Below, one piece after another: positions 5,455 to 62,610 of a stretch of 64,000 nucleotides of DNA. Within the stretch, counting starts at the first letter, position 1. Every line of letters begins with the position of its first letter. The notes beneath the pieces were generated by a model. The model did no database searches, was not told where the DNA came from, and saw only the letters and a program-made list of their open reading frames with translations. The stretch is from assembly GCA_021324775.1 (NCBI GenBank), contig JAJPIM010000006.1:62001-126000 (forward strand). Direction: 5' to 3'. This DNA is from Gemmatimonadota bacterium. Lineage in GTDB: Bacteria > Gemmatimonadota > Gemmatimonadetes > Gemmatimonadales > Gemmatimonadaceae. The position numbers and the translations under genes were made by a program.

Positions 5455-5625
5455 CGAATTCGTCCCTGGTAGGGGCCGGTCGCGACCGGCCAGTAAGACC
5501 GTGGTCGCAGTCCCGCCGTCGCCAGTTGCCGAGGGCTGCGGGGCCGGTTCGTGAAGCGCAGGCCGCCCCCTTCGGGCAACGGCCCCCGGACGGACGCCGC
5601 AACAGATGCCATGCTTGTCCGCCTC
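5455..5625 (+). repeat. Interspersed palindromic repeat cluster
   Basis: This 5312-5676 spacer holds one copy of the GTCCCTGGTAGGGGCCGG module with its GGCCGGTCGCGACCGGCC palindrome (from about 5463). A diverged GGGCAACGGCCCCCGGACGG module follows. No gene is evident. The element sits between two divergent genes and pushes open frames of both through itself, so starts drawn inside it should be distrusted. Confidence 0.75.
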
Positions 5626-5676
5626 CCACACGTCCCCGGGAATATCTTGGGCAGTGCCGAGGTCTCCTGATATGCA

Positions 5677-6252
5677 ATGCTACGTACGATACTCGCGGCC
5701 GGACCCGCGAACGAGGACGAGGTGCGGTCTGACGCCATGACGCCGTTCGAACAGGCCGTCGTGCCACACATGGACGCGGCCTATACCCTCGCGCGCTACC
5801 TCCTGCGCGACGAGGACGAGGCGCGCGATGCGGTGCAGGACGCGTATCTGCGCGCTCTCTCGTACTTCGGAGGGTTCCGGGGCGGCGATGGCCGCGCATG
5901 GCTGCTGGCCATCGTTCGCAACACGTGCCGCACGCGCCACCAGCGCTCCCGCACGGGCCCCATCACGGCATCGTTCGACGAAGAGATCCACACACCGGAA
6001 GGCGACGACGCCGGGACGGCGCCCGGCCAGACGGATCACGTGGCCGCTGAATCGGTGCGCGAAGCGGTCGGACGGTTGCCATTCGAGTTCCGCGAGGCGG
6101 TGGTCTTGCGCGAGGTGCACGGATATTCCTACAAGGAGATCGCGGATGTGGCCGGTGTGCCCGTCGGAACGGTCATGTCGCGGCTCGCGCGAGCCCGCCA
6201 GCGCCTGCGCGATGCGCTCGCACCGGAGCTTCGCCGGAGGATGTCGTCATGA
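5677..6252 (+). CDS. ECF-type RNA polymerase sigma factor
   Basis: The sigma-70 region 2 is visible ([20 protein letters not shown], then the DAYLRAL helix and [14 protein letters not shown]). Region 4 has the helix-turn-helix [19 protein letters not shown] followed by [12 protein letters not shown]. The 191-residue length fits an ECF factor with no extra domain. ATG at 5677 is the longest start; ATG at 5737 (MTPFEQAVV) is closer to the usual ECF N-terminus and equally possible. The stop overlaps the next start in ATGA. The following zinc-finger anti-sigma gene shows that activity is gated by sequestration. Confidence 0.93.
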
Positions 6253-7112
6253 CATGCGATGAGATCCGGCCGTTGATCGCCCCGTACCTCGATGGCGAGC
6301 TCGATCCCTCGGCCGCGGTATCCGTCGAGTCGCACATCGCCGGCTGTGAAGCGTGCGCACGGCACCTCGCCGAGCTGCGGGCGCTGAGCGGCGCGATTCG
6401 CGATGAGCTCCCCGCACTGGCCGCACCGGATGCGCTGCGGGCGCGGATCCTCGACGCCGTCCGGACGGCGATACCCGCCGCGCAGGAATCGGGCGCCACA
6501 CGCCAGGGCCCGCAACGGCTCGGCGCGGAGCACTTCGGCATGCAGCGCGGCAACAGGCCGCGCGTCCGGCCGCAATGGCTCGCCGCAGCCGCCCTGTACA
6601 TCGTCGTCGGCGCCGGCGCCTGGATGCTCGGCGTCGCCTACGGACGCTCGCCCGATAGCGCCGGATCGGGGTTGCGCGACGCCGTGGTCGCGAGCCACGT
6701 GCGGTCGCTCGAGGCCAGCCACTTGATCGATGTCGCGTCCTCGGACCGGCATACGGTCAAGCCATGGTTCGACGGGAAGCTCGATTTCTCGCCGCCGGTG
6801 CCGGACCTCACCACCCAGGGCTTTCCGCTCGTTGGCGGCCGTCTGGACTATCTGGATGGCCGCCCGGTCGCCGCTCTCGTGTACGGGCGCGCGAAACACG
6901 TCGTCAACTTGTTCATCTGGCCCGCCACGACGGATGCCCCGCATGACGCACTCCACGATGCCGCGCCCGCCACGGTGCGCGGATACCACATCCGCCACTG
7001 GGTGCGCGATGGCATGACGTTCTGGGCGGTCTCCGATGTCGCGGACCCCGACCTCGATAGCTTCGTCTCGCTGTTTCAAGCCAGCGGCCAGCCCGCGGAA
7101 TCGGTACGCTGA
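6249..7112 (+). CDS. Membrane-anchored zf-HC2 anti-sigma factor
   Basis: The first 45 residues carry the zinc-binding anti-sigma signature: [16 protein letters not shown], then HIAGCEAC with the H-x3-C-x2-C ligands. A transmembrane segment follows ([20 protein letters not shown]), and about 170 residues lie outside the membrane. This is the standard topology of an ECF-inhibiting sensor: the cytoplasmic zinc domain binds the sigma factor and the outer domain senses a signal or is cleaved. Translation is coupled to the sigma gene by a 4-base overlap. The outer domain ends [20 protein letters not shown], a pattern seen in other transmembrane anti-sigma proteins. Its ligand is not readable from sequence. 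Confidence 0.92.
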
Positions 7113-7167
7113 ATTCAACGCTGTTGATGCGCTGGTTCGAGCCCACACCTCACCAGCCCACGATGCA

Positions 7168-8409
7168 ATGACCGCCACGACCGTGGATCACGGGGATTTC
7201 GCTGGGGCCCGCGTCCGGTCGCGCGCCATCGACACCACGTGGACGCTCTACGCCGTGCTCACCGCGTCGGCATGCATCGTCGTCGGATTGATCTGGGACA
7301 TCTCGTGGCACCGCACGGTCGGCCGCGACACGTTCTGGACGTATCCCCACGTCCTCGAACAATTCGCGGCGACGCTGTCGGGTCTGAGTTGCGGCTGGCT
7401 CGTGCTCCGTACTACGTTCGCCGGCGACGACGCCGCCCGCGGTTCCACGGTCCGCTTCTGGGGATTTCGCGGCCCCCTCGGCGCCTGGGTCTGCATCTGG
7501 GGCACGATCCTCATGATCGCGTCGGCGCCGTTCGACGACTGGTGGCACAACGCCTACGGCCTCGACGTCACGATCGTCAGCCCGCCACACATGGTGCTCG
7601 CACTCGGCATGGCCGCGATCGAGGCCGGCGCGCTCCTCATGGTGCTCGCCGTGCAGAACCAGGCCCGCACGGCGGATGACCAGCACCGGTTCGGCCGGAG
7701 CTACGCGGTAGCCGGCGGCATTCTCATCACCATGATCGCCACGCTGATCATGCAGTACGCGGCCGCCGCTAACCGCATGCACTCGGCGATGTTCTACGAG
7801 ATCACGGGCGCCGTGTTTCCGATCTTCCTCGTCGCCTTCGCCCGCGCCTCACGCCTCGCATGGCCGGCGACGAAGACGGCCGCGGTCTATATGGGCATCG
7901 TCCTCGTGATGATGTGGACGCTGCAGCTCTTCCCTGCGACGCCGAAGCTCGCGCCGATCTACAATCCCGTCACGCACATGGTGCCGCCGTTCTTCCCGCT
8001 CCTCCTCATCATCCCGGCCGCCGCCCTGGATATCGAGCTCCGGCGATCCGGGGCGGCCCTGCGAAACGCCGCAGCGTCCGGCCCCGAGACCCGCGGCGGC
8101 GCCAGCGATTGGCTCCTCGCCCTGCTCCTCGGCGTCACGTTCGTCGCGATCATGGTCGCCGTGCACTGGTTCTGGTCGGAGTTCCTGCTCACGCCGTGGG
8201 GACGCAACTTCTTCTTTGCCGCCGACCAGTGGGATTACAATCGTCCGCTCGGAAGCTGGCGCTATCAGTACTGGGGACTCGACGGACCGCACCGCACGTT
8301 CGCGCTCCTGCCATTTGCCCGCGGCCTGGGCATCGCGACGCTGCTCGCGGCCGCGTCGGCCCGCGTCGGGTTGTGGTGGGGCAACGGCATGTCGCGCGTG
8401 ACGCGGTGA
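7168..8409 (+). CDS. Polytopic membrane protein in the ECF sigma operon, unknown function
   Basis: About ten hydrophobic segments run through 413 residues (for example LTASACIVVGLIWDI, MVLALGMAAIEAGALLMVLAV and VFPIFLVAFARASRLAW). Conserved-looking polar clusters face the membrane: WDISWHRTVGRDTFW near the N-terminus, DDWWHNAYGLDVTIVSPPHM, and ADQWDYNRPLGSWRYQYWG near the end. ATG at 7168 is chosen. The frame opens earlier at 7036, but that would overlap the anti-sigma gene heavily. The stop overlaps the next start in TGATG. I recognise no transporter family. The coupling to the HLHP protein suggests a two-component membrane assembly. Confidence 0.75.
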   Translation: MTATTVDHGDFAGARVRSRAIDTTWTLYAVLTASACIVVGLIWDISWHRTVGRDTFWTYPHVLEQFAATLSGLSCGWLVLRTTFAGDDAARGSTVRFWGFRGPLGAWVCIWGTILMIASAPFDDWWHNAYGLDVTIVSPPHMVLALGMAAIEAGALLMVLAVQNQARTADDQHRFGRSYAVAGGILITMIATLIMQYAAAANRMHSAMFYEITGAVFPIFLVAFARASRLAWPATKTAAVYMGIVLVMMWTLQLFPATPKLAPIYNPVTHMVPPFFPLLLIIPAAALDIELRRSGAALRNAAASGPETRGGASDWLLALLLGVTFVAIMVAVHWFWSEFLLTPWGRNFFFAADQWDYNRPLGSWRYQYWGLDGPHRTFALLPFARGLGIATLLAAASARVGLWWGNGMSRVTR

Positions 8410-10085
8410 TGCGTGCCGCGGCGCGGTGGTCGCGCGCGCTGAAGGGACTGAAGGGACTGCTGAAGGCGCTGCGGACCCTGCGGCGGATTATTGGTCTGGC
8501 GGCGATCGTCGCCGCGAATTCGGCCCACATCGGAAGCCCCGACGTGTACTACGAAGGGGCCGCCGGCCCGTATCACGTGCTGGTGGTGGTGAGGATGCCT
8601 GGCGTCGTACCCGGCGTTGCACAGATCGCGGTGCGCGTCTCCGGTGCGTCCGGCACCCCACCCGGCCGCGTGGCCGTCGGTGTCAACCACTTCAGCACGG
8701 TGACCGCGCCGCCGCTCGAGGACGCAGCACCCGACGCGGCCGGCCCGAATTCGTATTTCGGCAAGCTGTGGATCATGGCGGCTGGTTCGAACGAGGTCAC
8801 CGTGCAGGTCACGGGGCACGCCGGCACGGGGATCGCCATCGTTCCCGTGGTCGCCGTCGCCACGCAGAGACTGGCGCTCTACCCCTGGCTGGGCGCCGTG
8901 CTTGCCGTCATCGGGATCGCGCTCTTCCTCGGCGCCGTGTCGATCGTCGGGGCCGCGGTGCGAGAGAGCACGCTGCCGCCAGGCGACATGCCTGATCCCG
9001 CCCGCCGCCGGCAGGCCCGCTTCGCGATGGCGGCGACCGCTCTGTTCGTGGCGCTCATCCTCTACGGCGGACGCAGTTGGTGGAACAGCGAGGACCGCAG
9101 CTTCCAGCGCGAGCTGTATCACCCGATGGCAACGCGCGCGGAAGTGACGGACGCCGGACGCGCACTCGCATTCACGATCGTCGACAGCGAGTGGACCCAC
9201 CGCGGCGACACGACGTGGCAGATCGCCCACCGCGCGACCGGCTGGGGCCCGCTGATCCCGGACCACGGCAAGATCATGCATCTGTTCCTGGTCAGCGAGG
9301 CCGCGCCGTTCGCGTTCGCGCATCTGCATCCCGCAACCGTGGACTCGACGACGTTCACGGCCCAGCTCCCGCCGCTCGCTGCAGGCCGGTACCGCGTGTT
9401 CGCGGACATCGTGCACGAGAGCGGATTCGGCAAGACACTGGTCGCGACGGTCGATCTGCCCGAACCACCCGCACCCGCGCCGCCGCACTCCGTAACGACA
9501 CGATCGGGCACGCGAGCGAGCGGCACCATGCCTGTGTCACCCGCCGGAGCGGCGACGGACGCCGCTCGCGACACTGACGACGCCTGGAGCGCGGTGGCCG
9601 CCGTGCCGCTTGGCACTCCCGTGACGCTCGCCGATGGATCCACGCTCCGTTTGGTGGGCGGTGGTGCCGCGCCGGTAGCCGGAGGCGATGCGAGACTCCG
9701 GTTCGTGATTGACGCGCCCGGCGGACGGCCTGCCGTGCTGCAGCCCTATATGGGCATGGCCGGCCACGCCGTGGTCGAGCGCGATGACGGCTCGGTGTTC
9801 ATCCACCTGCACCCGATGGGCACGATCTCCGCGGCCTCACAGATGGCGTTCGCCGTGCGCACTGCGGCCGACACGATCGACGGAGACGTCGCGAAGCGCG
9901 TCGCCGCCAGCACGGCGGCGATGACCATGCCGATGCTGGCCAGCGACACGGTGTCGTTCCCGTACGCGTTCCCGCAGCCGGGCCAGTACCACGTCTGGGT
10001 GCAGGTGAAGCGAAACGGGATGATCCTGACGGCGCCCCTGCTGGTAAACGTGCAGCCACCCGCAACCGTCGTCGCCGCGCGCTGA
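8409..10085 (+). CDS. Membrane-anchored protein with two His/Met-rich HLHP modules
   Basis: The 558-residue protein starts with a hydrophobic segment (RRIIGLAAIVAANSA) and has two more around LAVIGIALFLGAVSIVGAAV and FAMAATALFVALILYGG. A large extracytoplasmic part follows. The motif DHGKIMHLFLVSE...FAHLHPA appears first. A second copy, YMGMAGHAVVERDDGSVFIHLHPMG, appears about 190 residues later, each inside a beta-rich domain ending like YHVWVQVKR. Clustered His and Met suggest metal binding, possibly copper given the divergent cupredoxin gene; that is inference. The start is the ATG that overlaps the previous stop; the frame is open far upstream but only as a shadow of the preceding gene. 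Confidence 0.78.
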   Translation: MRAAARWSRALKGLKGLLKALRTLRRIIGLAAIVAANSAHIGSPDVYYEGAAGPYHVLVVVRMPGVVPGVAQIAVRVSGASGTPPGRVAVGVNHFSTVTAPPLEDAAPDAAGPNSYFGKLWIMAAGSNEVTVQVTGHAGTGIAIVPVVAVATQRLALYPWLGAVLAVIGIALFLGAVSIVGAAVRESTLPPGDMPDPARRRQARFAMAATALFVALILYGGRSWWNSEDRSFQRELYHPMATRAEVTDAGRALAFTIVDSEWTHRGDTTWQIAHRATGWGPLIPDHGKIMHLFLVSEAAPFAFAHLHPATVDSTTFTAQLPPLAAGRYRVFADIVHESGFGKTLVATVDLPEPPAPAPPHSVTTRSGTRASGTMPVSPAGAATDAARDTDDAWSAVAAVPLGTPVTLADGSTLRLVGGGAAPVAGGDARLRFVIDAPGGRPAVLQPYMGMAGHAVVERDDGSVFIHLHPMGTISAASQMAFAVRTAADTIDGDVAKRVAASTAAMTMPMLASDTVSFPYAFPQPGQYHVWVQVKRNGMILTAPLLVNVQPPATVVAAR

Positions 10086-10092
10086 CCCGCGT

Positions 10093-10143
10093 GTTGGTTT
10101 TTTTGTCTACTTTCTACTTTCTGTACCGCTACTTTCTGCTTTT
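10093..10143 (+). repeat. CT-rich cassette
   Basis: A run of TTTTTTT followed by CTACTTTCTACTTTCTG and TACCGCTACTTTCTGC lies between convergent genes. The piece TTTCTGTACCGCT recurs at about 24252 and, with one change, at about 27216. Confidence 0.7.
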
Positions 10144-10437
10144 TTAGTCCGCGTACTCCAGGGACCCGTTCGCGGCCCGCACCATCACGCTGGCCATCGG
10201 CTCCGGCGTGATGAAAGAGATCGTCGCGCCACCAGAGAGATCGACATCCAGCGCCGTCCCGGCCTGCCGCACGCGCGTTACCGTGCCCCGGCTGTCCGCC
10301 GACCCCGGCGGCGCCGCCACCTTCACAGTCATCGTCGACCCATCGCCGAAATGCACGACGCACTGCGCGGTGTCGGTGTCGGCTCCCGCCACCGACCGCC
10401 CCGCGATGAGGCGCGTCAGTTTCTGGTTCAGCGCCAT
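10144..10437 (-). CDS. Small hypothetical protein, 97 aa
   Basis: The protein is soluble and beta-rich, with a repeated Gly/Ser pattern (VVHFGDGSTMTVKV and LDVDLSGGATISFI) that looks like two similar strand-turn-strand units. It begins MALNQKLTRLIAGRSVAG and has genome-typical codon use. It lies 13 bases downstream of the HNH-like gene on the same strand. No family is recognised. Confidence 0.6.
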   Translation of the reverse strand: MALNQKLTRLIAGRSVAGADTDTAQCVVHFGDGSTMTVKVAAPPGSADSRGTVTRVRQAGTALDVDLSGGATISFITPEPMASVMVRAANGSLEYAD

Positions 10438-10450
10438 GACGTGCCCGCGC

Positions 10451-10942
10451 TCACTGTTCCGCTACCCGCCGCCGCGCCGGCATGTATTTCTGGTACGCCG
10501 CGATCCAGTCCCTGGCGATCGCATCCTGTGCGGTCGTGAGCGAGATGGTATGCGCACACACCATCCGATGCAGCCGGTTCTCCAGCGCGTCTTTGACGTG
10601 TGCGTTCCACGGCTGCGTGAGATACGACTCCGGCCAGAGGTTCTTGATGGAGTTCGAGCCGCCGATTTCCAGACTGATGAGGTGGTCGACTTCGTAGTCG
10701 CCGGGCGCATGCACCGTGACGCCGTACTCGGCATACACCTCTCGCTTTATCTCGGCAGTCACATGCCGCACCCGCGATGAGTACCCAGGGGTGCAGACGT
10801 CCGTATCCGACACGGCGAGGACTGCCCCCGGGGTCAAGACGGAGTCGGGACGGATGGGCGTCGGCTGATCCTGAGCGGCGGCACGTCCCGCGCCCGCGCA
10901 CGCCAGGAGCACAGCGGCCGTGAAGGCGAATCGCAAGAGCAT
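10451..10942 (-). CDS. Secreted HNH-endonuclease-like protein
   Basis: An N-terminal signal peptide (LLRFAFTAAVLLACAGAGRAAAQ) precedes a compact domain. The core YEVDHLISLEIGGSNSIKNLWPE resembles the HNH fold: D-H, then N, then N-L-W-P-E. Small secreted proteins with this pattern are widespread and usually annotated only as HNH-like or hypothetical. Cys in VCTPGYSS and in MVCAHT could pair. It may cut DNA outside the cytoplasm, but activity is unproven. The start at 10942 gives a complete signal sequence. Confidence 0.7.
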   Translation of the reverse strand: MLLRFAFTAAVLLACAGAGRAAAQDQPTPIRPDSVLTPGAVLAVSDTDVCTPGYSSRVRHVTAEIKREVYAEYGVTVHAPGDYEVDHLISLEIGGSNSIKNLWPESYLTQPWNAHVKDALENRLHRMVCAHTISLTTAQDAIARDWIAAYQKYMPARRRVAEQ

Positions 10943-10979
10943 GCCTACGAACGTATGCGGAGGAGTCCCCTCGCGCGAA

Positions 10980-13614: not shown

Positions 13615-14040
13615 TCCGTCCCTGGTCGGGGCCGGTCGCGACCGGCCCGGTAGGACTGTGGTCGCCGTCCCGCCATGAACCGAAGGTAGCCCTTTTCGGG
13701 CAACGGCCCCCGACGGATGCCGCCGCCAACACCGTTCGGCCCCGCACATCACAACCCTCGGTCGGACTGTGGTCGCCGTCCCGCCATAACCCTTTCGACG
13801 AGGGCAGCACGGGCCGTTCGCGAACCGAAGGTCGCCCTGTTCGGGCAACGGCCCCTGACAGATGCCGCAGCCAACACTGTTCGGCCCCGCATCACAACCC
13901 GCGGTCGGACTGTGGTCGCCGTCCCGCCATAACCCGTCGACGAGGGCAGCAGGGGCCGTTCGCGAACGGCCCCTGACGGATGCCGTAGCCAACACTGTTC
14001 GGCCAACCATCGGTCGGCCTGTTCGGCCAACGGCCCCCAC
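13615..14040 (+). repeat. Array of about three interspersed palindromic repeat units
   Basis: Most of the 13447-14156 spacer is repeat DNA. One GTCCCTGG...GGCCGGTCGCGACCGGCC module starts at about 13617. Roughly 143-bp units containing GGACTGTGGTCGCCGTCCCG then follow at about 13763 and 13906. They hold both long (...AACCGAAGGTCGCCCTG...) and short (GGCCGTTCGCGAACGGCC) palindrome versions, the short one near 13954. No gene is seen; frames running through it repeat the same pseudo-peptides and are not credible. Confidence 0.85.
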
Positions 14041-14714: not shown

Positions 14715-14760
14715 AACGAATTCGTCCCTGGTAGGGGCCGGTCGCGACCGGCCCCTACGG
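14715..14760 (+). repeat. Single interspersed palindromic repeat
   Basis: One compact copy, CGAATTCGTCCCTGGTAGGG continuing into the GGGCCGGTCGCGACCGGCCC palindrome, lies after the DinB gene. It lacks the longer downstream module. Confidence 0.8.
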
Positions 14761-14835
14761 ATGCGGCGGCATCACGGTACCATCTCATGCCGCAAAACAA
14801 CCCGCCGCCATCCCACGTTCGTGCCGCTGTCGTTT

Positions 14836-18339: not shown

Positions 18340-18530
18340 CCGTCGTCGAGGGCAGCAGGAGCCGCCCCAACGCATTGGAACCATCCCTGGTAGGGGCCGG
18401 TCGCGACCGGCCCTGGTAAGACTGTCGTTGCCGTCCCACCGCAGCCTGTCGTCGAGGGCAGCAGGGGCCGTTCGAGAACCGAAGGTCGCCCTGTTCGGCA
18501 ACGGCCCCACCGTCCGCTGCCACCAATCGC
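18340..18530 (+). repeat. Interspersed palindromic repeat cluster
   Basis: The 18263-18669 spacer carries GAGGGCAGCAGGAGCCGCC, the GGCCGGTCGCGACCGGCC module (about 18394), GACTGTCGTTGCCGTCCCAC, and a long-form module around 18452-18508 (GAGGGCAGCAGGGGCCGTTC to GGGCAACGG...). No gene is visible. Confidence 0.8.
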
Positions 18531-30259: not shown

Positions 30260-30810
30260 CAATCCGTCCTGGTACGGTCCCGCACCAATCCGCCGGAGGT
30301 GTGGACCGATACGCATCCGTCCCTGGCATCGGCCGGCAGAATCCGTCCCTGGTAGGGGCCGGTCGCGACCGGCCCGGTAAGACTGTGGTCGCCGTCCCAC
30401 CAACGCCCGTCGTCGAGGGCAGCAGGGGCCGTTCGAGAACCGTAGGTCGCCCTTGTCGGGCAACGGCCCCACCATTCGCTGCCATCAAACGCCTGTCGTC
30501 GAGCGCAGCAGGGGCCGTTCGAGAACGGCCCCAGACGGATGCGGCAACAACGGCCCCAGACGGATGCGGCAGCAACGGCCCCAGACGGACGCGGCAACGA
30601 CGGCCCCAGACGGATGCGGCAGCCAACCCCTGTTCGCCCCGCATCACATCCTTCGGCGCCACACCAATCCGTCCCTGGTAGGGGCCGGTCGCGACCGGCC
30701 CGGTAAGACTGTGGTCGCCGTCCCACCATCACCAGTCGTCGAGGGCAGCAGGGGCCGTTCGCGAACCGTAGGTCGCCCTTGTCGGGCAACGGCCCCCCGT
30801 CCGATGCCAC
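30260..30810 (+). repeat. Largest interspersed palindromic repeat array
   Basis: The 30144-30953 spacer is almost entirely repeats. Two full modules (about 30342-30470 and 30668-30795) share GTCCCTGGTAGGGGCCGG, GACTGTGGTCGCCGTCCCAC, GAGGGCAGCAGGGGCCGTTC and GGTCGCCCTTGTCGGGCAACGG. Two degenerate module starts lie at about 30266 and 30318, and a short-form copy at about 30508-30533 leads into a 25-bp tandem repeat. No gene is credible here. Confidence 0.88.
30526..30625 (+). repeat. Four tandem copies of a 25-bp unit
   Basis: Units start at 30526, 30551, 30576 and 30601, each beginning CGGCCCCAGACGGATGCGGC with small changes. They are expansions of the right arm of the short-form palindrome repeat. 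Confidence 0.85.
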
Positions 30811-31747: not shown

Positions 31748-32719
31748 TCAACCCCGAGTTGTTCGGCGCCGCGAAGTAGTCTTCCGCGGCGCACCGCGCG
31801 CCTTGACCTCGCGAATGCGCGGCGCCCGCGCTCGTCCGTTGGACGTGGCGCCATCCGGCACGGCCGCCGCCACGCCCGCGGCAGCCCACCCATCGGCGTG
31901 ACCCGCGCTGGCCGCTGCCCGTTTCCCCGCGGGTGGCGTATGGCGCCCGTTTCGCGCGACATGGGCCTGCAGTGGCTTCGCGCGCCCGTGGTAGCCGAGC
32001 GCCGCTGAGACGGACGCCGCCGCCTCCATCACCGCGGCCGCCATCATGTCCCACTTCGCCGTCACCCGTCGCCGCGGCCCGCCCACCGTGAGCGCCGCGT
32101 TCACCTCACCCCGATGGTCGAAGACCGGCGCCGCCACGCCGTACACATCCTCCACCCGCTCGCCGCTGACGGTCGTGTAGCCGCGCTTCCGCGACTTCTC
32201 GAGCTCGCGCTCCAGCTCGGCCACATCCGTGATCGTGTTCGCCGTGTACTTGGTGAGCGGACGGTTCATGAACGCCGACTGCCGCCCGGGTGGCGCCCAC
32301 GCCAGCAGCGCCTTGCCACCAGCCGTGGCGTGCAGCGGCATGCTCCCGCCCAGCAATCCCGGCAGCATCAGCGGTTGAAAACTCTCGACGACATCGACGG
32401 TCACACCCTCGGTGCCGTTGAACAGCATCAATGTCGCCGTCTCGCTCGTCGCGTCACTGAGTTTGCGTAGCCACGGACTCACGACCCGCTGCAACGATGT
32501 CGAATGACGCGCCAGCTCGCCGTACGCGGCGAGACGGATACCCAGGCGATACGCACCTGAATGCTCATCCCGGTCGAGGAAGCCGCTCGCCTCGATCCGG
32601 CTGAGGATGCGGTAGGCCGTGCTCTTCGGCCACCGGAAAACCCGGGCGATCTCGCGCACCGAGAGCTCCGGCTGCTCCGGTGAAAACAACGCGAGAACCT
32701 TGCCGAGTTTCTGCAACAT
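31748..32719 (-). CDS. IclR-family transcriptional regulator (copy 1)
   Basis: An N-terminal winged helix (LSVREIARVFRWPKSTAYRILSR) is followed by the IclR effector domain (GVTVDVVESFQPL, GSMPLHATAGGKALLAW, RKRGYTTVSGERVEDVYGVAAPV). Beyond the domain, about 70 Ala/Arg-rich residues form an unusual basic tail. ATG at 32719 (MLQKLGKVL) has GGGAG about 8 bases upstream and aligns with the second IclR protein at 58997; the frame opens further but without support. Two near-identical elements lie upstream. The target genes are not known; it may control itself. Confidence 0.92.
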   Translation of the reverse strand: MLQKLGKVLALFSPEQPELSVREIARVFRWPKSTAYRILSRIEASGFLDRDEHSGAYRLGIRLAAYGELARHSTSLQRVVSPWLRKLSDATSETATLMLFNGTEGVTVDVVESFQPLMLPGLLGGSMPLHATAGGKALLAWAPPGRQSAFMNRPLTKYTANTITDVAELERELEKSRKRGYTTVSGERVEDVYGVAAPVFDHRGEVNAALTVGGPRRRVTAKWDMMAAAVMEAAASVSAALGYHGRAKPLQAHVARNGRHTPPAGKRAAASAGHADGWAAAGVAAAVPDGATSNGRARAPRIREVKARGAPRKTTSRRRTTRG

Positions 32720-32737
32720 CGACGCTCTCCCAGGGAA

Positions 32738-34021: not shown

Positions 34022-34080
34022 TCGACTTTCTACTTTCTGCACGTTTTTATTCTACTCGCTACTTTCTGTACTTCTCCTTT
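34022..34080 (+). repeat. CT-rich cassette
   Basis: GACTTTCTACTTTCTGCACG, then a T-run, CTACTCGCTACTTTCTGTAC and TTCTCCTTTCT fill the gap between the convergent glyoxalase-like and MFS genes. Confidence 0.65.
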
Positions 34081-35349
34081 CTAGCCCCCCCGGGGCTCGA
34101 TCGGCTCTTCCGGCCGCACGAACGCCCACGCCGTCGCGCCCAGCACGCACAGCACGGCCGCGACGAGAAACGATGCGGGCCACCCAAACCGGCCGGCAAT
34201 CCACGGTGTCAATGATGCGGTGACGACGCCGCCCAGTTGCGCACCCATGTTCATCACGCCCGACACCGCACCGGCCGACGAACCGGCGATGTCCGCGCTC
34301 ACCGACCAGAAGGAGCTCTGCGCCAGATAGAGGCATCCCGCTCCGGCCGCGAGTGTGATGCTCGCCACCCGCGCGCCCTCCGCCTGCGTCCCCAGCGCGA
34401 TGAACACCGCCGCCAATCCGATGCCGAATGCGGCGACGCCGCACCGGCCCGCCCGGCGCCCGTACCGGTGCGACAGCATGTCGTTGAGGATCCCGCCGCC
34501 GCCCGAGCCGAGCGCCATCGCGATGCCTGGGAGCATCGCGTAGCGGGCGGTGGTGCCGAGATCCATCCCGCGCGCCGTCCGCAGGTAGATGTAGAACCAG
34601 GCGAGGAAAATCCACGCCAGATAGCCGTAGCAGAAATAGCTCGTCGTGAGAAGGCGCACGTTGCGGTCGGCCCAGATCGTCCGCCAGGACAGCGGTGGCG
34701 CAAACACGCGCGCCGGAATCGCGCTCTCGATCAACGCGCGCTCCGCAGCCGAGACGCGCGGATGTGCCGCGGGTGTGTCGCGCGCAAGGAAATACCAGAC
34801 CGCGCCCGCGCAGACTCCAACGGCCGCGCACACGATGAACGATGCGCGCCACCCGAATCGGACCATGAGCGCCGTGACGATCGGCGGCGTGATCCCTGCC
34901 CCAATGCCGGGCCCCATGAATATCAGCCCGTTCGCCACACCCCGCTCTCGAACCGGTACCCATGAGGCCACGATCCGGTTCGCCGCCGGATACATCACGG
35001 CTTCGCCCGACCCCAACGCAAAGCGCAACACCGCCATGACGATGATCGCGGAACCCGCCACGGGCACGATCGCCATCGCGGCACTGAACACGCCCCACCA
35101 GAGGACCGCGACAGTCAGGATCCGGCGCGGGCCGAGCCGGTCCGCCGCCCGTCCGCCCGGCGCCTGAAACGCCGCATAGCCCAGGAGCAGCGCGCTCGAC
35201 AACCAGCCGAGCTGTACGTTCGACAGGTGGTACTCGCGCGCGATCGTCTGCCCCGCGACCGCGATGTTGACCCGGTCGAGATACGCGATCGTGCTGAGCA
35301 CGCAAAGCCACGCCACGAGCGTCCACCGGACCCGCCCAGGGCTGGTCAT
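34081..35349 (-). CDS. Major facilitator superfamily transporter
   Basis: Twelve hydrophobic helices over 422 residues, with the MFS loop motif GGRAADRLGPRRILT between helices 2 and 3 and the equivalent in the second half (NDMLSHRYGRRAGRC). The opening LSTIAYLDRVNIAVAGQTIAREY is typical of the anion:cation symporter group (hexuronate or galactonate type). It probably imports an organic or sugar acid. The start ATG has GAGGAGATAG in front, a ribosome-binding site created by the complement of a CT-rich stretch at 35350-35390. Confidence 0.92.
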   Translation of the reverse strand: MTSPGRVRWTLVAWLCVLSTIAYLDRVNIAVAGQTIAREYHLSNVQLGWLSSALLLGYAAFQAPGGRAADRLGPRRILTVAVLWWGVFSAAMAIVPVAGSAIIVMAVLRFALGSGEAVMYPAANRIVASWVPVRERGVANGLIFMGPGIGAGITPPIVTALMVRFGWRASFIVCAAVGVCAGAVWYFLARDTPAAHPRVSAAERALIESAIPARVFAPPLSWRTIWADRNVRLLTTSYFCYGYLAWIFLAWFYIYLRTARGMDLGTTARYAMLPGIAMALGSGGGGILNDMLSHRYGRRAGRCGVAAFGIGLAAVFIALGTQAEGARVASITLAAGAGCLYLAQSSFWSVSADIAGSSAGAVSGVMNMGAQLGGVVTASLTPWIAGRFGWPASFLVAAVLCVLGATAWAFVRPEEPIEPRGG

Positions 35350-35462: not shown

Positions 35463-35562
35463 CATCTCCTTTCTCCTCTCCGCTTTGCCCCTTTCTGCTT
35501 TTTTGGTTTTCGCTTTTTGGCTTTTGTCTACTTTCTACTTTCTGCGTTTCTACTTTCTGGCT
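35463..35562 (+). repeat. Long CT/T-rich tract before the RidA gene
   Basis: This is the longest member of the pyrimidine family, with CTCCTTTCTCCTCTCCGC, TTTTTTGGTTTTCGC and repeated CTACTTTCTACTTTCTG and CTACTTTCTGG. It lies just upstream of the RidA start, so it would be in the 5' leader or promoter. Confidence 0.65.
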
Positions 35563-35575
35563 TCTGGAGCACACC

Positions 35576-40864: not shown

Positions 40865-40879
40865 CACGAAACGATTTGC

Positions 40880-41016
40880 GTGGCTGCCGTCCCACCACTG
40901 CTAGTCGCCGAGGGCAGCAGGCGCCGTTCGCGAACCGAAGGTCGCCCTGTTCGGGCAACGGCGCCTATCCCGCCCTGCATCAGCCGTGGGCCGAATGCCG
41001 CCCCAATTCGTCCCTG
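40880..41016 (+). repeat. Interspersed palindromic repeat between ATPase and binding-protein genes
   Basis: GTGGCTGCCGTCCCACCAC, GAGGGCAGCAGGCGCCGTTC and the long-form GGTCGCCCTGTTCGGGCAAC are followed by a truncated ATTCGTCCCTGG. This copy sits inside the importer operon. Confidence 0.8.
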
Positions 41017-54191: not shown

Positions 54192-54218
54192 CCCGGACCG
54201 GTGCCACAAATGAGACGC

Positions 54219-54237: not shown

Positions 54238-54283
54238 CCACCCGGCAGCCGCACGTGTCAAGTCAGGAGTGGAAAAGGGTGTC

Positions 54284-57170: not shown

Positions 57171-57708
57171 AATCACAGAGTCGCGGGCGGCGATCATCGC
57201 CTGCCTCGATACGGCGGAGGTGCTGGACCGCCTCCCCGATCACGGTGGGGCGTTCCGCGCGCGTGTCGCGTGCGAGGAGCTCCTGCTCATCGGACCGGCG
57301 ACCGCCGCCGCTGACCTGCTCGCCTACGCGACGGCGTACCTTGAGCGTGCCGGATCGTCGGGACTCGCGGTCGACGTCACCGACGCTTGGAGCGTGTGCA
57401 CGGTCTCGGGCGCGGATGCCGCCGAGGTGTGGGCCCGTCTCTCCGAGAATCGCATGCCCGATGAGCGGCCGGCGTTCGTGCAGGGCGCCGTCGCGTCGAT
57501 TCCCGCCAAGACGATCGCCGGAGACCGCGAGATCCACGTGATCACCCCGTCGAACCTCGGCCATCACGTGCCGCACCGGATCTTCAGCGCATGCCGGGAC
57601 CTCGCACCACAGGCGGGCGCGCCGCGCCAGTTCGCCGTCCGTCGTGTGGCGCCGGCCGGCGCCGGCGCGTCCAGCACGGACGCGACACCCGTCAGAGTGG
57701 CCTCGTGA
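57163..57708 (+). CDS. soxG: Sarcosine oxidase gamma-subunit-type protein
   Basis: The 181-residue protein has the SoxG/GcvT-fold appearance: GAFRARVACEELLLIGP, then VDVTDAWSVCTVSGADAAEVWARLSENR and REIHVITPSNLGHHVPHRIF. It is a structural subunit bound to the alpha C-terminal part. It starts at GTG 57163, overlapping the alpha stop by 8 bases. The C-terminal Ala/Gly tail (RVAPAGAGASSTDATP) is low complexity. The assignment rests partly on its place between alpha and beta genes. Confidence 0.78.
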   Translation: MVEITESRAAIIACLDTAEVLDRLPDHGGAFRARVACEELLLIGPATAAADLLAYATAYLERAGSSGLAVDVTDAWSVCTVSGADAAEVWARLSENRMPDERPAFVQGAVASIPAKTIAGDREIHVITPSNLGHHVPHRIFSACRDLAPQAGAPRQFAVRRVAPAGAGASSTDATPVRVAS

Positions 57709-57732
57709 GGGTCGCATCGTGAAGGTGGCATC

Positions 57733-58941
57733 GTGAGCGGGTGGCTGCGCCGGCGGACGTACCTGCGGACCAACGACCGCAAGCCGCACTACGATGTCGT
57801 GATCATCGGCGGTGGCGGCCACGGGCTCGCGACCGCGTATTACCTCGCGGCCCGCTTCGGCATCACCAATGTCGCGGTGCTGGAGCGGTCGTACATCGGC
57901 TCGGGCGGCACCGGACGCAACACGACGATCCTCCGCGCGAACTACAAGACGCCGTCCACGATCCGGTTCTTCAAGGCCAGCTTCGACATGTACGCCGGTC
58001 TCGCCGGGGAGCTGGACTACAACATGCTGCGCTCGGAGCGCGGCCTGTTCTGGCTCGCGCACTCGGAGTTGCAGATGCAGAACCAGATCGAGCGCGCCCT
58101 GCAGAATCAGACCTTCGGCGTCAACACGGTCTATCTCTCGCCGGACGAGATCCAGCGCATCTGCCCGCAGCTCGACATGTCGGGCGGCGGCTCGCGGCCG
58201 ATCATGGGTGCGGCGTACCACCCGCCGGGGTCGACCATCCGCCACGACGCGGTCGCCTGGGCGTACGCGAGCCAGGCACAGCGCCGCGGCGTGCATATCC
58301 ATCAGGGCGTGTCCGTGATCGGCGTGCGTGTCGAGCACGGCCGCTGCGTCGGCGTCGACACGACCGCCGGCCACATCGGCGCGGGCGCCGTGGTCAGCGC
58401 GGTCGGCGGCTATGTGACGCTGGTCGCCGATATGGTCGGTCTGGAGCTGCCGATCATCACGCACCCGCTGCAGGCGTTCGTCACCGAATCCTACCGGCCC
58501 GCGCTCGACCCCATCGTGGCATCGGCCGATCTCCACATTTACGTGTCGCAGAGCGCGCGGGGCGAGTTCCTGATCGGGGCCGAGATCGATCCGTATACCA
58601 GCTATTCGACACGGTCCACGTACCCGTTCCTGTCCTCGGCCGCGGCCCGCTCGCTGGAGCTGTTTCCGTTTCTCGCGAAGTTGAAGATCCTGCGGCAATG
58701 GACCGGCGTCTGCGACATGACGCCCGACTATTCGCCGCTCATGGGCGTGACGCCGGTCGAATCGTTCTACCTGTCGTCGGGATGGGGGACGTGGGGCTTC
58801 AAGGCCATCCCGGCATCCGGCATCGCCATGGCGGAGCTGGTGGCAACCGGAAAGGTGCCGCCGCTCATCGAAGCATTTGCGCTCGACCGGTTCGAGAGGG
58901 ATCGCGCGGTATCCGAGCGAGCCTCGGCGGGTACTCACTAG
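57733..58941 (+). CDS. soxB: Sarcosine oxidase beta-like FAD/FMN subunit
   Basis: The N-terminus YDVVIIGGGGHGLATAYYLAARFG is the FAD-binding motif. The SoxB signatures VLERSYIGSGGTGRNTTILRANY, TIRHDAVAWAYASQAQRRG (the His that carries covalent FMN in SoxB) and WTGVCDMTPDYSPLMG, with GWGTWGFKAIPASG, all appear. It oxidises the substrate and passes electrons on. GTG at 57733 is the start. The operon order is D-A-G-B rather than the usual B-D-A-G. The regulator follows 55 bases later. Confidence 0.94.
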   Translation: MSGWLRRRTYLRTNDRKPHYDVVIIGGGGHGLATAYYLAARFGITNVAVLERSYIGSGGTGRNTTILRANYKTPSTIRFFKASFDMYAGLAGELDYNMLRSERGLFWLAHSELQMQNQIERALQNQTFGVNTVYLSPDEIQRICPQLDMSGGGSRPIMGAAYHPPGSTIRHDAVAWAYASQAQRRGVHIHQGVSVIGVRVEHGRCVGVDTTAGHIGAGAVVSAVGGYVTLVADMVGLELPIITHPLQAFVTESYRPALDPIVASADLHIYVSQSARGEFLIGAEIDPYTSYSTRSTYPFLSSAAARSLELFPFLAKLKILRQWTGVCDMTPDYSPLMGVTPVESFYLSSGWGTWGFKAIPASGIAMAELVATGKVPPLIEAFALDRFERDRAVSERASAGTH

Positions 58942-58996
58942 TGCGGCGAGAGATGTGCCGTCTGATCAAGTAGCCTGATCTGTGCAGGAGGGATAG

Positions 58997-59863
58997 ATGC
59001 TGCAAAAACTGAGTAGGGTGCTGAATCTGTTCACGCCCGATCGTGCCGAGCTGTCCGTTCGCGACATCGCGCGCCCGTTCAAGTGGCCCAAGAGCACGGC
59101 GTACCGGATCCTGAGCCGCATCCAGCAGATCGGATTTCTCGATCGCGATGAGCGGACCGGGTTGTACCGGCTGGGCATCCGCCTGGCCATCTACGGCGAG
59201 CTCGCGCGGCATTCGACGTCGCTCCAGCGCATCGTATCGCCGGTCCTCCACCGGCTGAGCGCCGCCACGAGCGAGACCGCGACGCTGATGCTGCTCAACG
59301 GACAGGAAGGCGTGACCGTGGACGTCGTGGAGAGCTTCCAGCCGCTCATGCTTCCGGGACTACTCGGGGGGCGCATGCCGCTGCACGCGACCGCCGGTGG
59401 CAAGGCCCTGCTCGCGTGGGCCCATCCCTCGCGCCATGAGGCACTGCTGCGACCGCCGTTCGAGCGATTCACGCAAACCACGATCACCGACCCCGCGGAG
59501 CTGATGCGGGAGTTGGACAAGTCCAGGAAGCGCGGCTACACGATCGTGAACGGCGAGCACGTCGAGAACGTGGTCGGTGTCGGCGTGCCGATCCACGACC
59601 ACCAGGGAGGCGTGCCGGCCGCCCTCACGGTCGCTGGCCCTCGGCACCGCGCGACGGGCAAGCTCGAGATGATGGCCGCCGCGGCGATGTCCGCCGCCGC
59701 ATCGGTCTCCGCCACCCTCGGCTACAACGCCCACACCACCGGCGACGGCGCGCTGGATGGGGCCGCCGCACGCCGCAGCCCCGTCCGCCGCGCGCCTGGC
59801 ACACCGCGACGCAGCACGATCGCCTCGGCGGCGCCACGCCCAAGAGCAAGACCGCCGCGCTAG
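58997..59863 (+). CDS. IclR-family transcriptional regulator (copy 2)
   Basis: The winged helix (LSVRDIARPFKWPKSTAYRILSR) and effector domain (GVTVDVVESFQPLMLPGLLGG, MPLHATAGGKALLAW, RKRGYTIVNGEHVENVVGVGVPI) are like those of copy 1 at 31748, over nearly the full length. The ribosome-binding site GGAGGG precedes ATG 58997. A short Ala/Arg tail ends the protein. Its place after the sox-like genes suggests it controls them, possibly through the palindrome at 54219. The ligand would then be an N-methyl amino acid, which is inference. Confidence 0.93.
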   Translation: MLQKLSRVLNLFTPDRAELSVRDIARPFKWPKSTAYRILSRIQQIGFLDRDERTGLYRLGIRLAIYGELARHSTSLQRIVSPVLHRLSAATSETATLMLLNGQEGVTVDVVESFQPLMLPGLLGGRMPLHATAGGKALLAWAHPSRHEALLRPPFERFTQTTITDPAELMRELDKSRKRGYTIVNGEHVENVVGVGVPIHDHQGGVPAALTVAGPRHRATGKLEMMAAAAMSAAASVSATLGYNAHTTGDGALDGAAARRSPVRRAPGTPRRSTIASAAPRPRARPPR

Positions 59864-59900
59864 CGCCATGGGCGTTAGCGCGATGGAGTCCTAGCGCCGG

Positions 59901-59970
59901 CCGATCGATCCCGGCGCGCCGATTGATGCCAGCGCGCCAATTGATGCCAGCGCGCCGATTGATTGCCGCG
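59901..59970 (+). repeat. 18-bp tandem repeat
   Basis: Units at 59901, 59919 and 59937 begin CCGATCGATCCCGGCGCG, CCGATTGATGCCAGCGCG and CCAATTGATGCCAGCGCG, and a fourth partial unit follows at 59955. It sits just after the IclR gene stop. Confidence 0.85.
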
Positions 59971-59984
59971 CTGCGGTCAGAATT

Positions 59985-60290
59985 CGTCTCTGGTCGCACT
60001 GTTCGACGCCGGCTCGGCGATCAGAATCGTCCCTGGTAGGGGCCGGTCGCGACCGGCCCAGGTGCGCCCCGCACCGATGCACGGGCCGTATTCCGCAGGA
60101 CCATCCACCAATCCACGGGCTCCGCACCATCGCCGCGGATTAACGCAGCGGGGGCCGTTCGTGAACGGCCCCCAGACGGATGCCGCAGCCAACATATCGG
60201 CCCGCATCGCAACCATCGGCACCGCACCAATCCGTCCCTGGTAGGGCCCGGTCGCGACCGGCCCTCTCTGGTTGCCGTCCCACCGCCGCC
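59985..60290 (+). repeat. Interspersed palindromic repeat cluster
   Basis: Copies of GTCCCTGGTAGGGGCCGG with the GCCGGTCGCGACCGGC palindrome lie near 60029 and 60235. The short form GGGGCCGTTCGTGAACGGCC is near 60150, and a diverged AATTCGTCTCTGG is at about 59992. No gene is visible in 59864-60301. Confidence 0.83.
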
Positions 60291-60301
60291 CGTGGCCCCT
60301 G

Positions 60302-62404
60302 CTACGGCTGCGTATTCGTGACCCCTTCCGACCCCGCCTTCGGGAAGTGCGCCTCGTACCACCTGATGCGCCGGTCGATGCCATCGATGATGTGTTTCGT
60401 TTCCGCGAGGCCGTGCCCCTCTCTCGGATACCGCACGAATATCGTCTCCACCCCCACATCCTTGAGCGCGATGAAATACTGCTCGGCCTCCCCGATCGGC
60501 ACATCGGGATCATTCTCACCATGCATGAACATCGTCGGCGTATGCACCTGCGCGACGTACTTGATCGCCGAGTGGTTCCAGACCAGATCCATCGTCGTGC
60601 CCTGGTGGAGGAACTGCCCGTACTCCATCTCGAGGTACTGGTTGTAGTACGTCATGTAGTTGAAGCTCACGAGATTGCTGATGCCCGCCGTGGGTACCGC
60701 CGCCTTGAACTCGTTGGTCTGCGTGATGAGCCAATCCGTGAGCTGCCCGCCGTAACTGACGCCTTCGATCCCCATGCGTTCGCGATCGATCCACAGATTG
60801 CGGCGGAGCGTCGCGCTGACCGCGTACAACACGTCCTGCCCTTCGTTGCCATCCTGATCGCCGAACACCGCGTCCGCGAACTTCTGCCCGTAGCCCGTGG
60901 AGCCGCGGTAGTTGACGTGCAGCGTCGCGAACCCGTGCGCCGCATACACCTGGTCCTGGAACTCGAACTCGGGCCCGTTCTGGCCGTGCGGGCCGCCGTG
61001 GATCTCGACGATCAACGGATACTTCTTCGCCGGCGACGTGTCCGCCGGATTCACCGCCAGCCCCACCGGCAGCACGAGAAACGACTCGACCGCGAACTTG
61101 TTGTCGTTGCTGACCGCGACCACCGAATCCACGCTCGCGATCTGCTTGCCCGTGAGGAGGGCTGAGTTGAGATCGGTGAGCTTCCGGGGCGCGGTCGCGC
61201 CGCTCCGGACATAGAGCTCTGCCATGTCCTTCGTCGTCGTGAGCCCGTATGCGATCTGTCCCGCCTTGCCGGCCGAAAACTCGTAGGCCCAACCGAGATC
61301 GTTGACGACGACCTGCGGCGTGCCCGCCACGCCAGCCGGCGACACCGGGATCCGCAACACGTGCACGCTCCCGCGCTGTTCCGCCGAGACGTACACCGCG
61401 GCGCCGTCCGGCGACCACTGAGGATGGCCCTGGCGCGCGTCCACGGACCCGATTTCGTGACGGTGGCTGCCGTCGGCGTCCATGACCCACGCGTGGGTGT
61501 CTTCCATCGTGGTCTCGCGGTCGGTCAACCCTCGGGTGGTGGCCGAGTAGACGATGTGCTTGCCATCGGGCGACCACCTGGGCGCGTATTCGGTGCTTTC
61601 CGTCGAGGTGAGACGCGTGATGGCGCCGTCAGCCGGATCCACCGTGAACACATCGTAGTTGAAGAACTCGTCGGAGTTCGGCTCGTAGTTGGAGATGAAC
61701 ACGATGTGCTTCCCGTCGGGCGACCAGTCGATCGAATGCTCATCGCGAATCCCCTTCGTGAGCTGCCGCACCTGCTTCGACCCGACGTCCACGATGAAGA
61801 TGTGGAGGTGGCGGTTGTCGTTGAAATGCGTCAGGCCCTCCTCCGCCGTCGCGTGATACAGATACCGGGTGAAGACCTTGGGGTCGCCATTCGCGGCCTC
61901 GGTCTCCGGTCCGGGGATCGACGAGACGAACGCGATCTGTTTCCCGTCGGGCGCCCACGTGATGTCCTGGCCGCGGTCGGGCAGCGGCGCGTTGGAGCTC
62001 GCGACCGGCGCGACGACCGCCGCACCCGATCCATCGGGATGCACGACCCAGAGGCCGTTCTGGTCGCCATCCGCGCCCTCGTACGCGATCCACTTTCCGT
62101 CCGGGGACCAGTGCGGCGACGCCCCGTTGGCGTGCTCGCTGCCGATGCGCGTGGATTTCTGCGTGGCGATATCCGCCACCCAGAGCTGCGTGTACGGGCG
62201 CCCCGGCTGGTCGCCCATGGTGACCGTGTAGGCGACGCTCCGCCCGTCGGGCGACAGCGCGACTTCCGCCACGGATCGGAACTGCGTGAGATCGGCGCTC
62301 TGCAACAGGCCCTGCGCCTGGACGGACACCGCCGCGCCGGCCACACCGGCGCCCGCGAGCATCAGGGACTCCAAGACAATCGATAGCTGCCGGCACGTTC
62401 CCAT
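60302..62404 (-). CDS. S9-family serine peptidase (second copy), exported
   Basis: A signal peptide (SLMLAGAGVAGAAVSVQAQ) leads to a beta-propeller of WSPDGK repeats (SPHWSPDGKWIAYEG, PRWSPDGKHIVYSA, PQWSPDGAAVYVSA). The catalytic domain carries Ser in GVSYGGQLTDWLI, Asp in MHGENDPDVP and His in PREGHGLAE. It is a dipeptidyl- or acylaminoacyl-peptidase type enzyme. ATG at 62404 (MGTCRQLSIVL) is chosen because the longer frame runs through a repeat element. It resembles the importer-linked S9 enzyme in layout but not closely in sequence. Confidence 0.93.
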   Translation of the reverse strand: MGTCRQLSIVLESLMLAGAGVAGAAVSVQAQGLLQSADLTQFRSVAEVALSPDGRSVAYTVTMGDQPGRPYTQLWVADIATQKSTRIGSEHANGASPHWSPDGKWIAYEGADGDQNGLWVVHPDGSGAAVVAPVASSNAPLPDRGQDITWAPDGKQIAFVSSIPGPETEAANGDPKVFTRYLYHATAEEGLTHFNDNRHLHIFIVDVGSKQVRQLTKGIRDEHSIDWSPDGKHIVFISNYEPNSDEFFNYDVFTVDPADGAITRLTSTESTEYAPRWSPDGKHIVYSATTRGLTDRETTMEDTHAWVMDADGSHRHEIGSVDARQGHPQWSPDGAAVYVSAEQRGSVHVLRIPVSPAGVAGTPQVVVNDLGWAYEFSAGKAGQIAYGLTTTKDMAELYVRSGATAPRKLTDLNSALLTGKQIASVDSVVAVSNDNKFAVESFLVLPVGLAVNPADTSPAKKYPLIVEIHGGPHGQNGPEFEFQDQVYAAHGFATLHVNYRGSTGYGQKFADAVFGDQDGNEGQDVLYAVSATLRRNLWIDRERMGIEGVSYGGQLTDWLITQTNEFKAAVPTAGISNLVSFNYMTYYNQYLEMEYGQFLHQGTTMDLVWNHSAIKYVAQVHTPTMFMHGENDPDVPIGEAEQYFIALKDVGVETIFVRYPREGHGLAETKHIIDGIDRRIRWYEAHFPKAGSEGVTNTQP

Positions 62405-62438
62405 GAGCGATCTGGCTCCTCTGGAGGATCGGGCGACA

Positions 62439-62467
62439 GATGTATGAATCAGTGCAGGAAATGGCAA
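62439..62467 (-). promoter_or_regulatory. Possible promoter of the second S9 peptidase
   Basis: Minus-strand TTGCCA (62462-62467) and TACATC (62439-62444) have a 17-base spacer. The -10 is poor, so this is tentative. Confidence 0.35.
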
Positions 62468-62509
62468 GCAGGACCAATTATTGGGACAGGATCGGCACCA
62501 GTGCTGCGC

Positions 62510-62610
62510 TTCTAGTCGCTGCCACCCACAGCCTGTCGCCGAGGGCAGCAGGCGCCGTTCGAGAACCGTAGGTCGCCCTGTCGGGCAACGGCGCTTCTGG
62601 TCGCTGCCAC
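62510..62610 (+). repeat. Interspersed palindromic repeat, long form
   Basis: GAGGGCAGCAGGCGCCGTTC and the long-form GTAGGTCGCCCTGTCGGGCA are followed by GGCGCTTCTGGTCGCTGCCA. It lies about 110 bases upstream of the S9 start. Confidence 0.75.

What the first reader, a model, noticed from the sequence alone, without database searches (positions are those of the whole stretch)
5455..62610. Orientation-locked interspersed palindromic repeats
At least eight spacers (5455, 13615, 14715, 18340, 30260, 40880, 59985, 62510) carry the same modules: GTCCCTGGTAGGGGCCGG with the GGGCCGGTCGCGACCGGCCC palindrome, GACTGTGGTCGCCGTCCC, and a second palindrome GGCCGTTCGCGAACGGCC in short or long form. The long form inserts GTCGCCCTGTTCGGGCAAC between the arms. 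Every copy I located is in the same direction on the + strand, whatever the neighbouring gene direction. REP/BIME-type elements usually occur in both directions, so a fixed direction suggests a replication-linked role or a directional mobiliser. No RAYT-type transposase is seen in the window.
Basis: partly seen in the sequence, partly recalled or inferred. Interest (0 to 1): 0.75.

Follow-up and report, generated by a model that had tools for sequence, protein, structure and literature searches.

The report
One-way palindromic repeats locked to replication
This bacterium's genome carries about a hundred copies of a short palindromic repeat that nearly all point the same way relative to chromosome copying, which suggests the repeats spread at the replication fork.

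Summary
The repeats are real and all + in the window. M1, a GTAG-headed 20-bp palindrome, has 104 copies in the 4.19-Mb draft genome. In the 34% sampled, 98 of 98 copies outside contig C43 follow GC-skew sign; 7 of 7 on C43 oppose it. M2, the second palindrome, agrees in 74 of 78 outside C43. Gene direction does not explain this (22 same, 17 opposite). A RAYT (Y1/HuH) gene elsewhere in the genome is bracketed by inverted M2 copies. Relatives vary: congener G002, sharing M2, 18 of 22; another genus, different GTAG repeat, solitary copies 18 of 19; congener G001, 5 with and 10 against; E. coli K-12 solitary REPs 5 with, 6 against. Where skew differs between own genome and G002 in matched blocks, repeats flip too in three of six. 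Best reading: solitary REPs inserted by the RAYT from single-stranded DNA at forks, as IS200/IS605 elements are. Against it: polarity is opposite to the IS608 rule, and unrelated 7-bp tandem arrays are locked too (67 of 67). A known kind with a testable property that my paper searches did not turn up.

The parts
5462..5586 (+). M1 (GTAG head + GGGCCGGTCGCGACCGGCCC palindrome) 5462-5491, linker 5497-5517, degenerate M2 long form 5533-5586
13618..13994 (+). M1 13618-13647; linkers 13654, 13765, 13908; M2 insert 13679-13706; M2 long form from 13802; M2 short form from 13944
14724..14753 (+). M1 alone, followed by CCTAC; pyrimidine heptad array about 80 bp further on
18383..18509 (+). M1 18383-18412, linker 18420-18440, M2 long form from 18456
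30345..30470 (+). M1 30345-30374, linker 30381-30401, M2 long form from 30417
30503..30534 (+). M2 short form
30524..30623 (+). 25-bp tandem array built from the M2 tail (AACGGCCCCAGACGGATGCGGCAGC)
   Evidence: family D8
30671..30796 (+). second M1-linker-M2 unit, 97% identical to the first, 326 bp on
   Evidence: family D1
40876..40965 (+). decayed linker and M2 long form, no M1
60029..60058 (+). M1
60143..60174 (+). M2 short form
60234..60284 (+). M1 60234-60263 and a weak linker
62543..62596 (+). M2 long form, no M1
10106..10145 (+). pyrimidine-rich heptad array (TCTACTT)n, a separate repeat kind with the same direction lock; more at 14835, 24240, 27204, 34022-34090, 35465-35566, 51017

Best explanation
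M1 and M2 are REP elements (M1 of the GTAG type), mostly solitary or as direct M1-then-M2 pairs. They were most likely spread by the RAYT encoded on contig C5, a Y1/HuH single-strand transposase, acting on DNA that is single-stranded at replication forks. A new copy is joined to only one arm of the fork, so it faces one way relative to fork movement: GTAG end towards the terminus, element reading towards the origin. Shown: the repeats, the lock, a RAYT bracketed by M2, and copies absent from matching spacers of a congener. Inferred: that the RAYT does it, that insertion (not later loss) sets direction, that the fork is the target, and that absent means never inserted.
For: Lock: 98 of 98 sampled M1 copies outside C43 follow local GC-skew sign; by contig 22 of 23, C37 left out. 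Gene direction not involved. In three blocks matched with congener G002 (own C42, C40, C18) skew and repeat direction are both flipped relative to genes; the skew flip holds on the aligned parts alone. RAYT with H83, H85 and Y148 invariant in six sequences, Pfam Y1_Tnp over cut-off, flanked by M2(-) and M2(+). Nine of nine M1 copies with a matched spacer have no M1 in G002. A different GTAG-REP in another genus (G031) is locked the same way when solitary, 18 of 19. IS200/IS605 elements are reported to take their orientation from replication direction (PMC5371812, passages).
Against: The GTAG strand lies on the leading-strand template, whereas IS608's transposed strand favours the lagging-strand template. 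In three other matched blocks skew differs between the species but repeat direction does not (own C43, C19 and part of C37), so three of six. Congener G001, with a RAYT 44% identical and its own GTAG-REP, shows no lock (5 with, 10 against, 1 mixed cluster), nor do E. coli K-12 solitary REPs (5 with, 6 against). Heptad arrays that a RAYT is not expected to move are equally locked. G002 carries M2, but this RAYT as query found none there. C43 opposes its skew (7 of 7 M1). M2 short form has no GTAG 5' of its stem. RAYT scores 59.9 against NCBIfam's cut-off of 80. In four of the nine matched spacers the empty one is longer than the occupied one.
Confidence: 0.47

Rival explanations
1. Orientation-dependent survival: repeats arise in both directions, but copies in one direction are lost because they stall or slip at forks, so only one direction remains.
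For: Two unrelated repeat kinds are locked: M1/M2 and G-rich heptad arrays, 67 of 67. [quoted passage not shown]
Against: The M1 stem is a palindrome and folds alike on both strands (-10.5 and -10.1 kcal/mol), so direction should hardly matter. Wrong-way REPs persist in inverted clusters in G031 (8 clusters) and beside the RAYT.
Confidence: 0.26
2. Selected directional signal: copies are kept because a chromosome-segregation or replication protein reads them with polarity, as FtsK reads KOPS (recalled).
For: Near-absolute lock in the sample; ordinary octamers are also skewed between strands, at most 4.7-fold among those with 120 or more leading-strand counts.
Against: M1 (up to 2 mismatches) is in 0 of 59 relatives searched, two of them congeners, and in 0 of 9 matched spacers of G002. 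Copies are uneven: one in about 94 kb at the origin end of C37 against 17 in the other 147 kb. Flanks are mosaics.
Confidence: 0.13
3. Gene-linked elements such as terminators or mRNA stabilisers, whose direction follows transcription.
For: Copies are enriched between convergent genes (36 of 93 intergenic M1 copies with both neighbours called, against 82 of 571 spacers).
Against: Between co-directional genes 22 copies run with and 17 against the genes; genes are only 54% on the leading strand.
Confidence: 0.02
4. Spread by another replication-coupled mobiliser (Tn7-like TnsE, a group II intron-type retroelement, or single-strand annealing of fragments as Okazaki-like primers) and not by the RAYT.
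For: Polarity is opposite to the IS608 rule and would fit incorporation into the nascent lagging strand; G002 has M2 and no RAYT was found there with this query.
Against: The RAYT is bracketed by M2. No search for such other enzymes was made.
Confidence: 0.12

Closest known systems
GTAG-tagged REPs and their RAYTs (PMC2817692, PMC3733652; passages read)
   Same: GTAG head 5' of a 20-bp palindrome (M1), intergenic, enriched between convergent genes, RAYT gene bracketed by inverted palindromes (M2), species-specific sequence.
   Different: Rarely in inverted pairs (39 of 105 M1 have M2 within 300 bp downstream, 0 of 39 inverted) and locked to replication direction; the passages read describe REPs in alternating or inverted orientation.
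IS200/IS605 single-strand transposons (PMC5371812, passages read)
   Same: Y1/HuH enzyme family; orientation follows host replication.
   Different: No transposase inside the element; polarity of the head-bearing strand is opposite.
REPINs and BIMEs of E. coli and Pseudomonas (PMC3116915, PMC8266576; passages read)
   Same: REP units, RAYT partner. PMC3116915 reports five SBW25 tandem arrays forward near 2 Mbp and six reverse near 4 Mbp, perhaps a hint of the same lock.
   Different: They are inverted doublets; in 400 kb of K-12 20 of 31 clusters were mixed and the 11 solitary ones unlocked.
KOPS and similar polar octamers (recalled, no call)
   Same: Polar over the replichore.
   Different: Short, moderately skewed and conserved; these are long, species-specific and near-absolute.
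Heptad G-rich repeats of Xanthomonas and Nostoc (PMC4692102, passages read)
   Same: Own heptads include GGGGATT and GGGGACT, the Nostoc units.
   Different: In Xanthomonas no leading/lagging preference is reported; here 67 of 67.

Membership tests
GTAG-tagged REP | GTAG tetranucleotide directly 5' of a 20-40 bp palindrome, many intergenic copies | tested here: met
   M1: 104 copies, 3 of 105 sampled in predicted genes. M2 short form lacks the 5' GTAG; its long form has an inner CGTAG-hairpin
[quoted passage not shown]
   C5:353786-354307, M2(-) at 353661 and M2(+) at 354348. The flanking units are M2, not M1; nearest M1 found on that side is at C5:340475
REPIN/BIME | REPs in inverted doublets | tested here: not met
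   0 of 39 M1-M2 pairs inverted; inverted M2 copies seen beside the RAYT and its relic and on C34
RAYT (Y1/HuH transposase) | HuH motif and catalytic tyrosine, IS200-like family | tested here: met
   H83, H85, Y148 invariant in 6 sequences; Pfam over cut-off. NCBIfam RAYT model below its cut-off, 59.9 against 80
IS200/IS605 transposition | Orientation follows replication with the transferred strand in the lagging-strand template | tested here: inconclusive
   Orientation follows skew but the GTAG strand is on the other template; which strand is transferred is unknown
IS200/IS605 transposition | Single-stranded circular intermediate | not testable with these tools
   needs biochemistry
Polar segregation signal (KOPS-like) | Conserved in related species | tested here: not met
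   M1 (up to 2 mismatches) in 0 of 59 relatives
Polar segregation signal (KOPS-like) | Read by a DNA translocase | not testable with these tools
   needs binding assays

The most novel reading that the evidence does not exclude
Solitary REPs in this lineage are laid down as single strands that become part of the nascent lagging strand (like Okazaki fragments), the reverse of the IS608 rule. Direction of a REP is then a fossil record of fork direction when it arrived, and the heptad arrays share the same fork-borne origin or filter.
Probability: 0.2. Interest if true: 0.82.

Novelty: new variant of a known kind. Interest (0 to 1): 0.62.

Why it matters
How REPs multiply is an open question: an E. 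coli RAYT cuts single-stranded REP in vitro (PMC3733652, passage), but dissemination is called poorly understood (PMC8266576, abstract). A replication lock seen in two species sharing M2 and in a different REP of another genus, with an unlocked congener as contrast, points to the fork as the place of entry and gives a polarity that any model must match. Locked repeats might also mark fork direction in draft genomes.

Tried and rejected
Terminator or gene-linked reading: rejected on counts. Rfam: no match in the window at gathering score. No tRNA in the window. Ordinary skew of short words as the cause: octamers with 120 or more leading-strand counts reach at most 4.7-fold, M1 is all-or-none outside C43. 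rRNA as anchor of fork direction: no 16S found in this draft, so rplB and the dnaA-dnaN spacer were used. tRNAs of the sample were few and mixed. CGTC-type repeats of G031: 8 mixed clusters, 3 single, no verdict. A recent inversion as the reason for C43: not settled, because its M1 copies match the consensus exactly or nearly and M1 is absent from G002, while third-codon skew is opposite.

Choices made after seeing data: the split of C37 at 147 kb; leaving C43 out of the headline counts; the 400-bp rule that separates solitary copies from clusters in G031 (after the listing), then applied to G001 and E. coli. G031 and G002 stretches were picked because they hold repeats. In G002 direction of M2 was scored on 9 flanking bases. 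Reversed-pattern controls were 9 for the 42 M2 sites of G002, 2 for the 39 sites of G031 and 2 for E. coli, so some weak sites are chance. On the final recount I set out that only three of six skew-differing blocks flip together, and lowered the best explanation from 0.5 to 0.47.
Full report
What is there. The window holds eight copies of module M1, GTCCCTGGTAGGGGCCGGTCGCGACCGGCC, a GTAG head followed by a 20-bp palindrome, all on +. Seven copies of the linker GACTGTGGTCGCCGTCCC are on +, with one 3-mismatch hit on -. The second palindrome M2 (GCAGCRGGGGCCGTTCGCGAACGGCCCC) comes in a short form and in a long form with CGTAGGTCGCCCTGTTCGGGCAAC between the arms, on +. The spacers are mosaics: not each has every module. 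Shuffled sequence gives 0.1-0.3 matches per module.

The whole genome. The window is contig C37:62001-126000 of a 46-contig, 4.19-Mb draft. M1 has 104 copies with up to 3 mismatches, 56 + and 48 -, and none for the reversed pattern. I sampled 1,439,095 bases (34%). With up to 4 mismatches 105 copies were found: 56 + all in negative local skew, 42 - all in positive skew, and 7 - on contig C43 in negative skew. Neighbouring copies on a contig agree in 80 of 81 pairs. By contig, 22 of 23 agree with skew (C37 left out because it changes sign; p = 6e-6). M2 agrees in 74 of 78 outside C43, where 5 of 5 disagree. Two of the four exceptions sit beside the RAYT and its relic on C5, one is in an inverted pair on C34, and one (C27:59323) lies where skew is only -0.006.

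Not genes. Between co-directional genes 22 M1 copies run with and 17 against the genes; 611 of 1125 predicted genes (54%) are on the leading strand as defined by the repeats or, failing them, skew. The gene caller was my own simple codon model.

Fork direction. Skew gives the sign. The likely oriC is the dnaA-dnaN spacer, C37:227060-227632: it holds the G+C minimum of the contig, and on the other side of dnaA lie rpmH and rnpA; dnaN, rpmH and rnpA I recognised by eye. The long arm to its left, 1-147 kb, has negative skew and + repeats, as expected if G marks the leading strand. rplB lies + on C25, where the listed heptad repeats are all -. So M1 reads from terminus to origin and its GTAG strand is the leading-strand template. 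The 147-227 kb segment next to oriC is out of line: weak positive skew and a single - copy, so this anchor is not perfect.

The RAYT. One Y1 transposase gene passes Pfam's cut-off, C5:353786-354307. HuH and tyrosine are invariant in six aligned sequences. M2 copies flank it in inverted orientation, and a 73%-identical truncated copy 3.7 kb away has the same kind of upstream M2. RAYTs flanked by inverted REPs are the published hallmark (PMC2817692, passages). The NCBIfam RAYT model falls short of its cut-off.

Relatives. M1 with up to 2 mismatches occurs in 0 of 59 relatives. Congener G002 has M2 (42 sites with up to 2 mismatches, 9 for the reversed pattern); this RAYT as query found no relative there (draft 92% complete). 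M2 direction agrees with skew in 18 of 22 sampled copies. Syntenic stretches were matched at 73-80% identity. Leaving out two stretches near oriC, six larger blocks differ in skew sign on their aligned parts. In three (own C42, C40, C18) repeat direction is reversed as well; for C40 and C18 the G002 copy lies 1.5-2.2 kb beyond the aligned part. In the other three (own C43, C19 and part of C37) repeat direction is the same although skew differs: in C43 it is the own genome that disagrees with its skew, in the other two it is G002. These blocks, with G002 C11:101 kb, remain unexplained. Of nine M1 copies whose spacer could be matched, G002 has M1 in none; the own spacer is the longer in five (e.g. 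C39:26925, 252 bp against 9 bp) and the shorter in four. In one, own has M1 + and G002 has M2 -, each agreeing with its own skew.

Generality. G031, another genus, has GTAGGGGCAGGCCCCCGTG (39 sites, 2 for the reversed pattern). Its solitary or direct copies agree with the same polarity in 18 of 19 cases; eight inverted clusters are outside the count. Congener G001, with its own REP and RAYT, shows no lock: 5 with, 10 against, 1 mixed; its skew is weak and its contigs short. E. coli K-12, eight stretches of 50 kb: 20 of 31 clusters mixed, solitary 5 with and 6 against. The lock is therefore seen in three of the four genomes of this family that were sampled, and is not automatic.

A second locked repeat. 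Tandem arrays of period 7 (GGGGATT, GGGGACT, AGAGAGT, AAAGGAG and others) number 67 against 0-9 for each of six other periods; the G-rich strand is on the leading strand in 67 of 67. Direction here uses the frame set by M1, or by skew where M1 is absent; none of the 67 is on sampled C43. Sixty lie more than 500 bp from M1 or M2. The motif TCTACTTTCTACTTTCTG agrees with skew in 56 of 58 sampled sites; both exceptions are halves of inverted pairs. Such arrays in Xanthomonas show no leading/lagging preference (PMC4692102, passages). A RAYT is not expected to move them; orientation-dependent stability could explain them.

Mechanism and print. The nearest precedent is single-strand transposition of IS200/IS605 elements, whose orientation is said to recapitulate replication direction (PMC5371812, passages). 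I find that the best frame, at 0.47, because enzyme, element type and lock fit; opposite polarity, the heptads, unlocked G001 and the three unflipped blocks count against it. In the held open-access library, searches listed no paper that I could see, from titles, abstract openings and passages, to report replication-locked REPs; the nearest hint is SBW25 tandem REP arrays, forward near 2 Mbp and reverse near 4 Mbp (PMC3116915, passages). Gomez 2014 on transposon orientation and the clamp is not held, so the claim of novelty is limited.

Noticed in passing
window 10106, 14835, 24240, 27204, 34022-34090, 35465-35566, 51017; genome-wide: Pyrimidine-rich heptad arrays, all + in the window; genome-wide 193 matches of TCTACTTTCTACTTTCTG, overlapping registers included, and 67 of 67 sampled period-7 arrays with the G-rich strand leading. 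Some sites are inverted pairs about 70-100 bp apart.
   Followed up: partly
contig C43 (215 kb; L100-L103): Sampled M1 and M2 point against local skew; third-codon skew about -0.1 while intergenic skew is near zero. The G002 homologue agrees with its skew.
   Followed up: partly
contig C37:147-227 kb (L037-L041): Segment next to the likely oriC with weak opposite skew and one M1 copy only; PMC3390384 also says REPs are typically absent near the origin in Pseudomonas (passage).
   Followed up: no
window 30524-30623: 25-bp tandem array grown from the M2 tail.
   Followed up: no
contig C5:350077-350256: Truncated RAYT relic, 73% identical to the intact one over 60 residues.
   Followed up: partly
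L053-L063: The exact 23-mer GTAGGGGCCGGTCGCGACCGGCC occurs in MAGs of Bacteroidetes, Chloroflexota, Omnitrophota and Victivallales; perhaps independent GTAG-REPs with the same stem.
   Followed up: no
window 31987-32720 and 58996-59729: Two inverted stretches 71-73% alike, probably paralogous genes.
   Followed up: no
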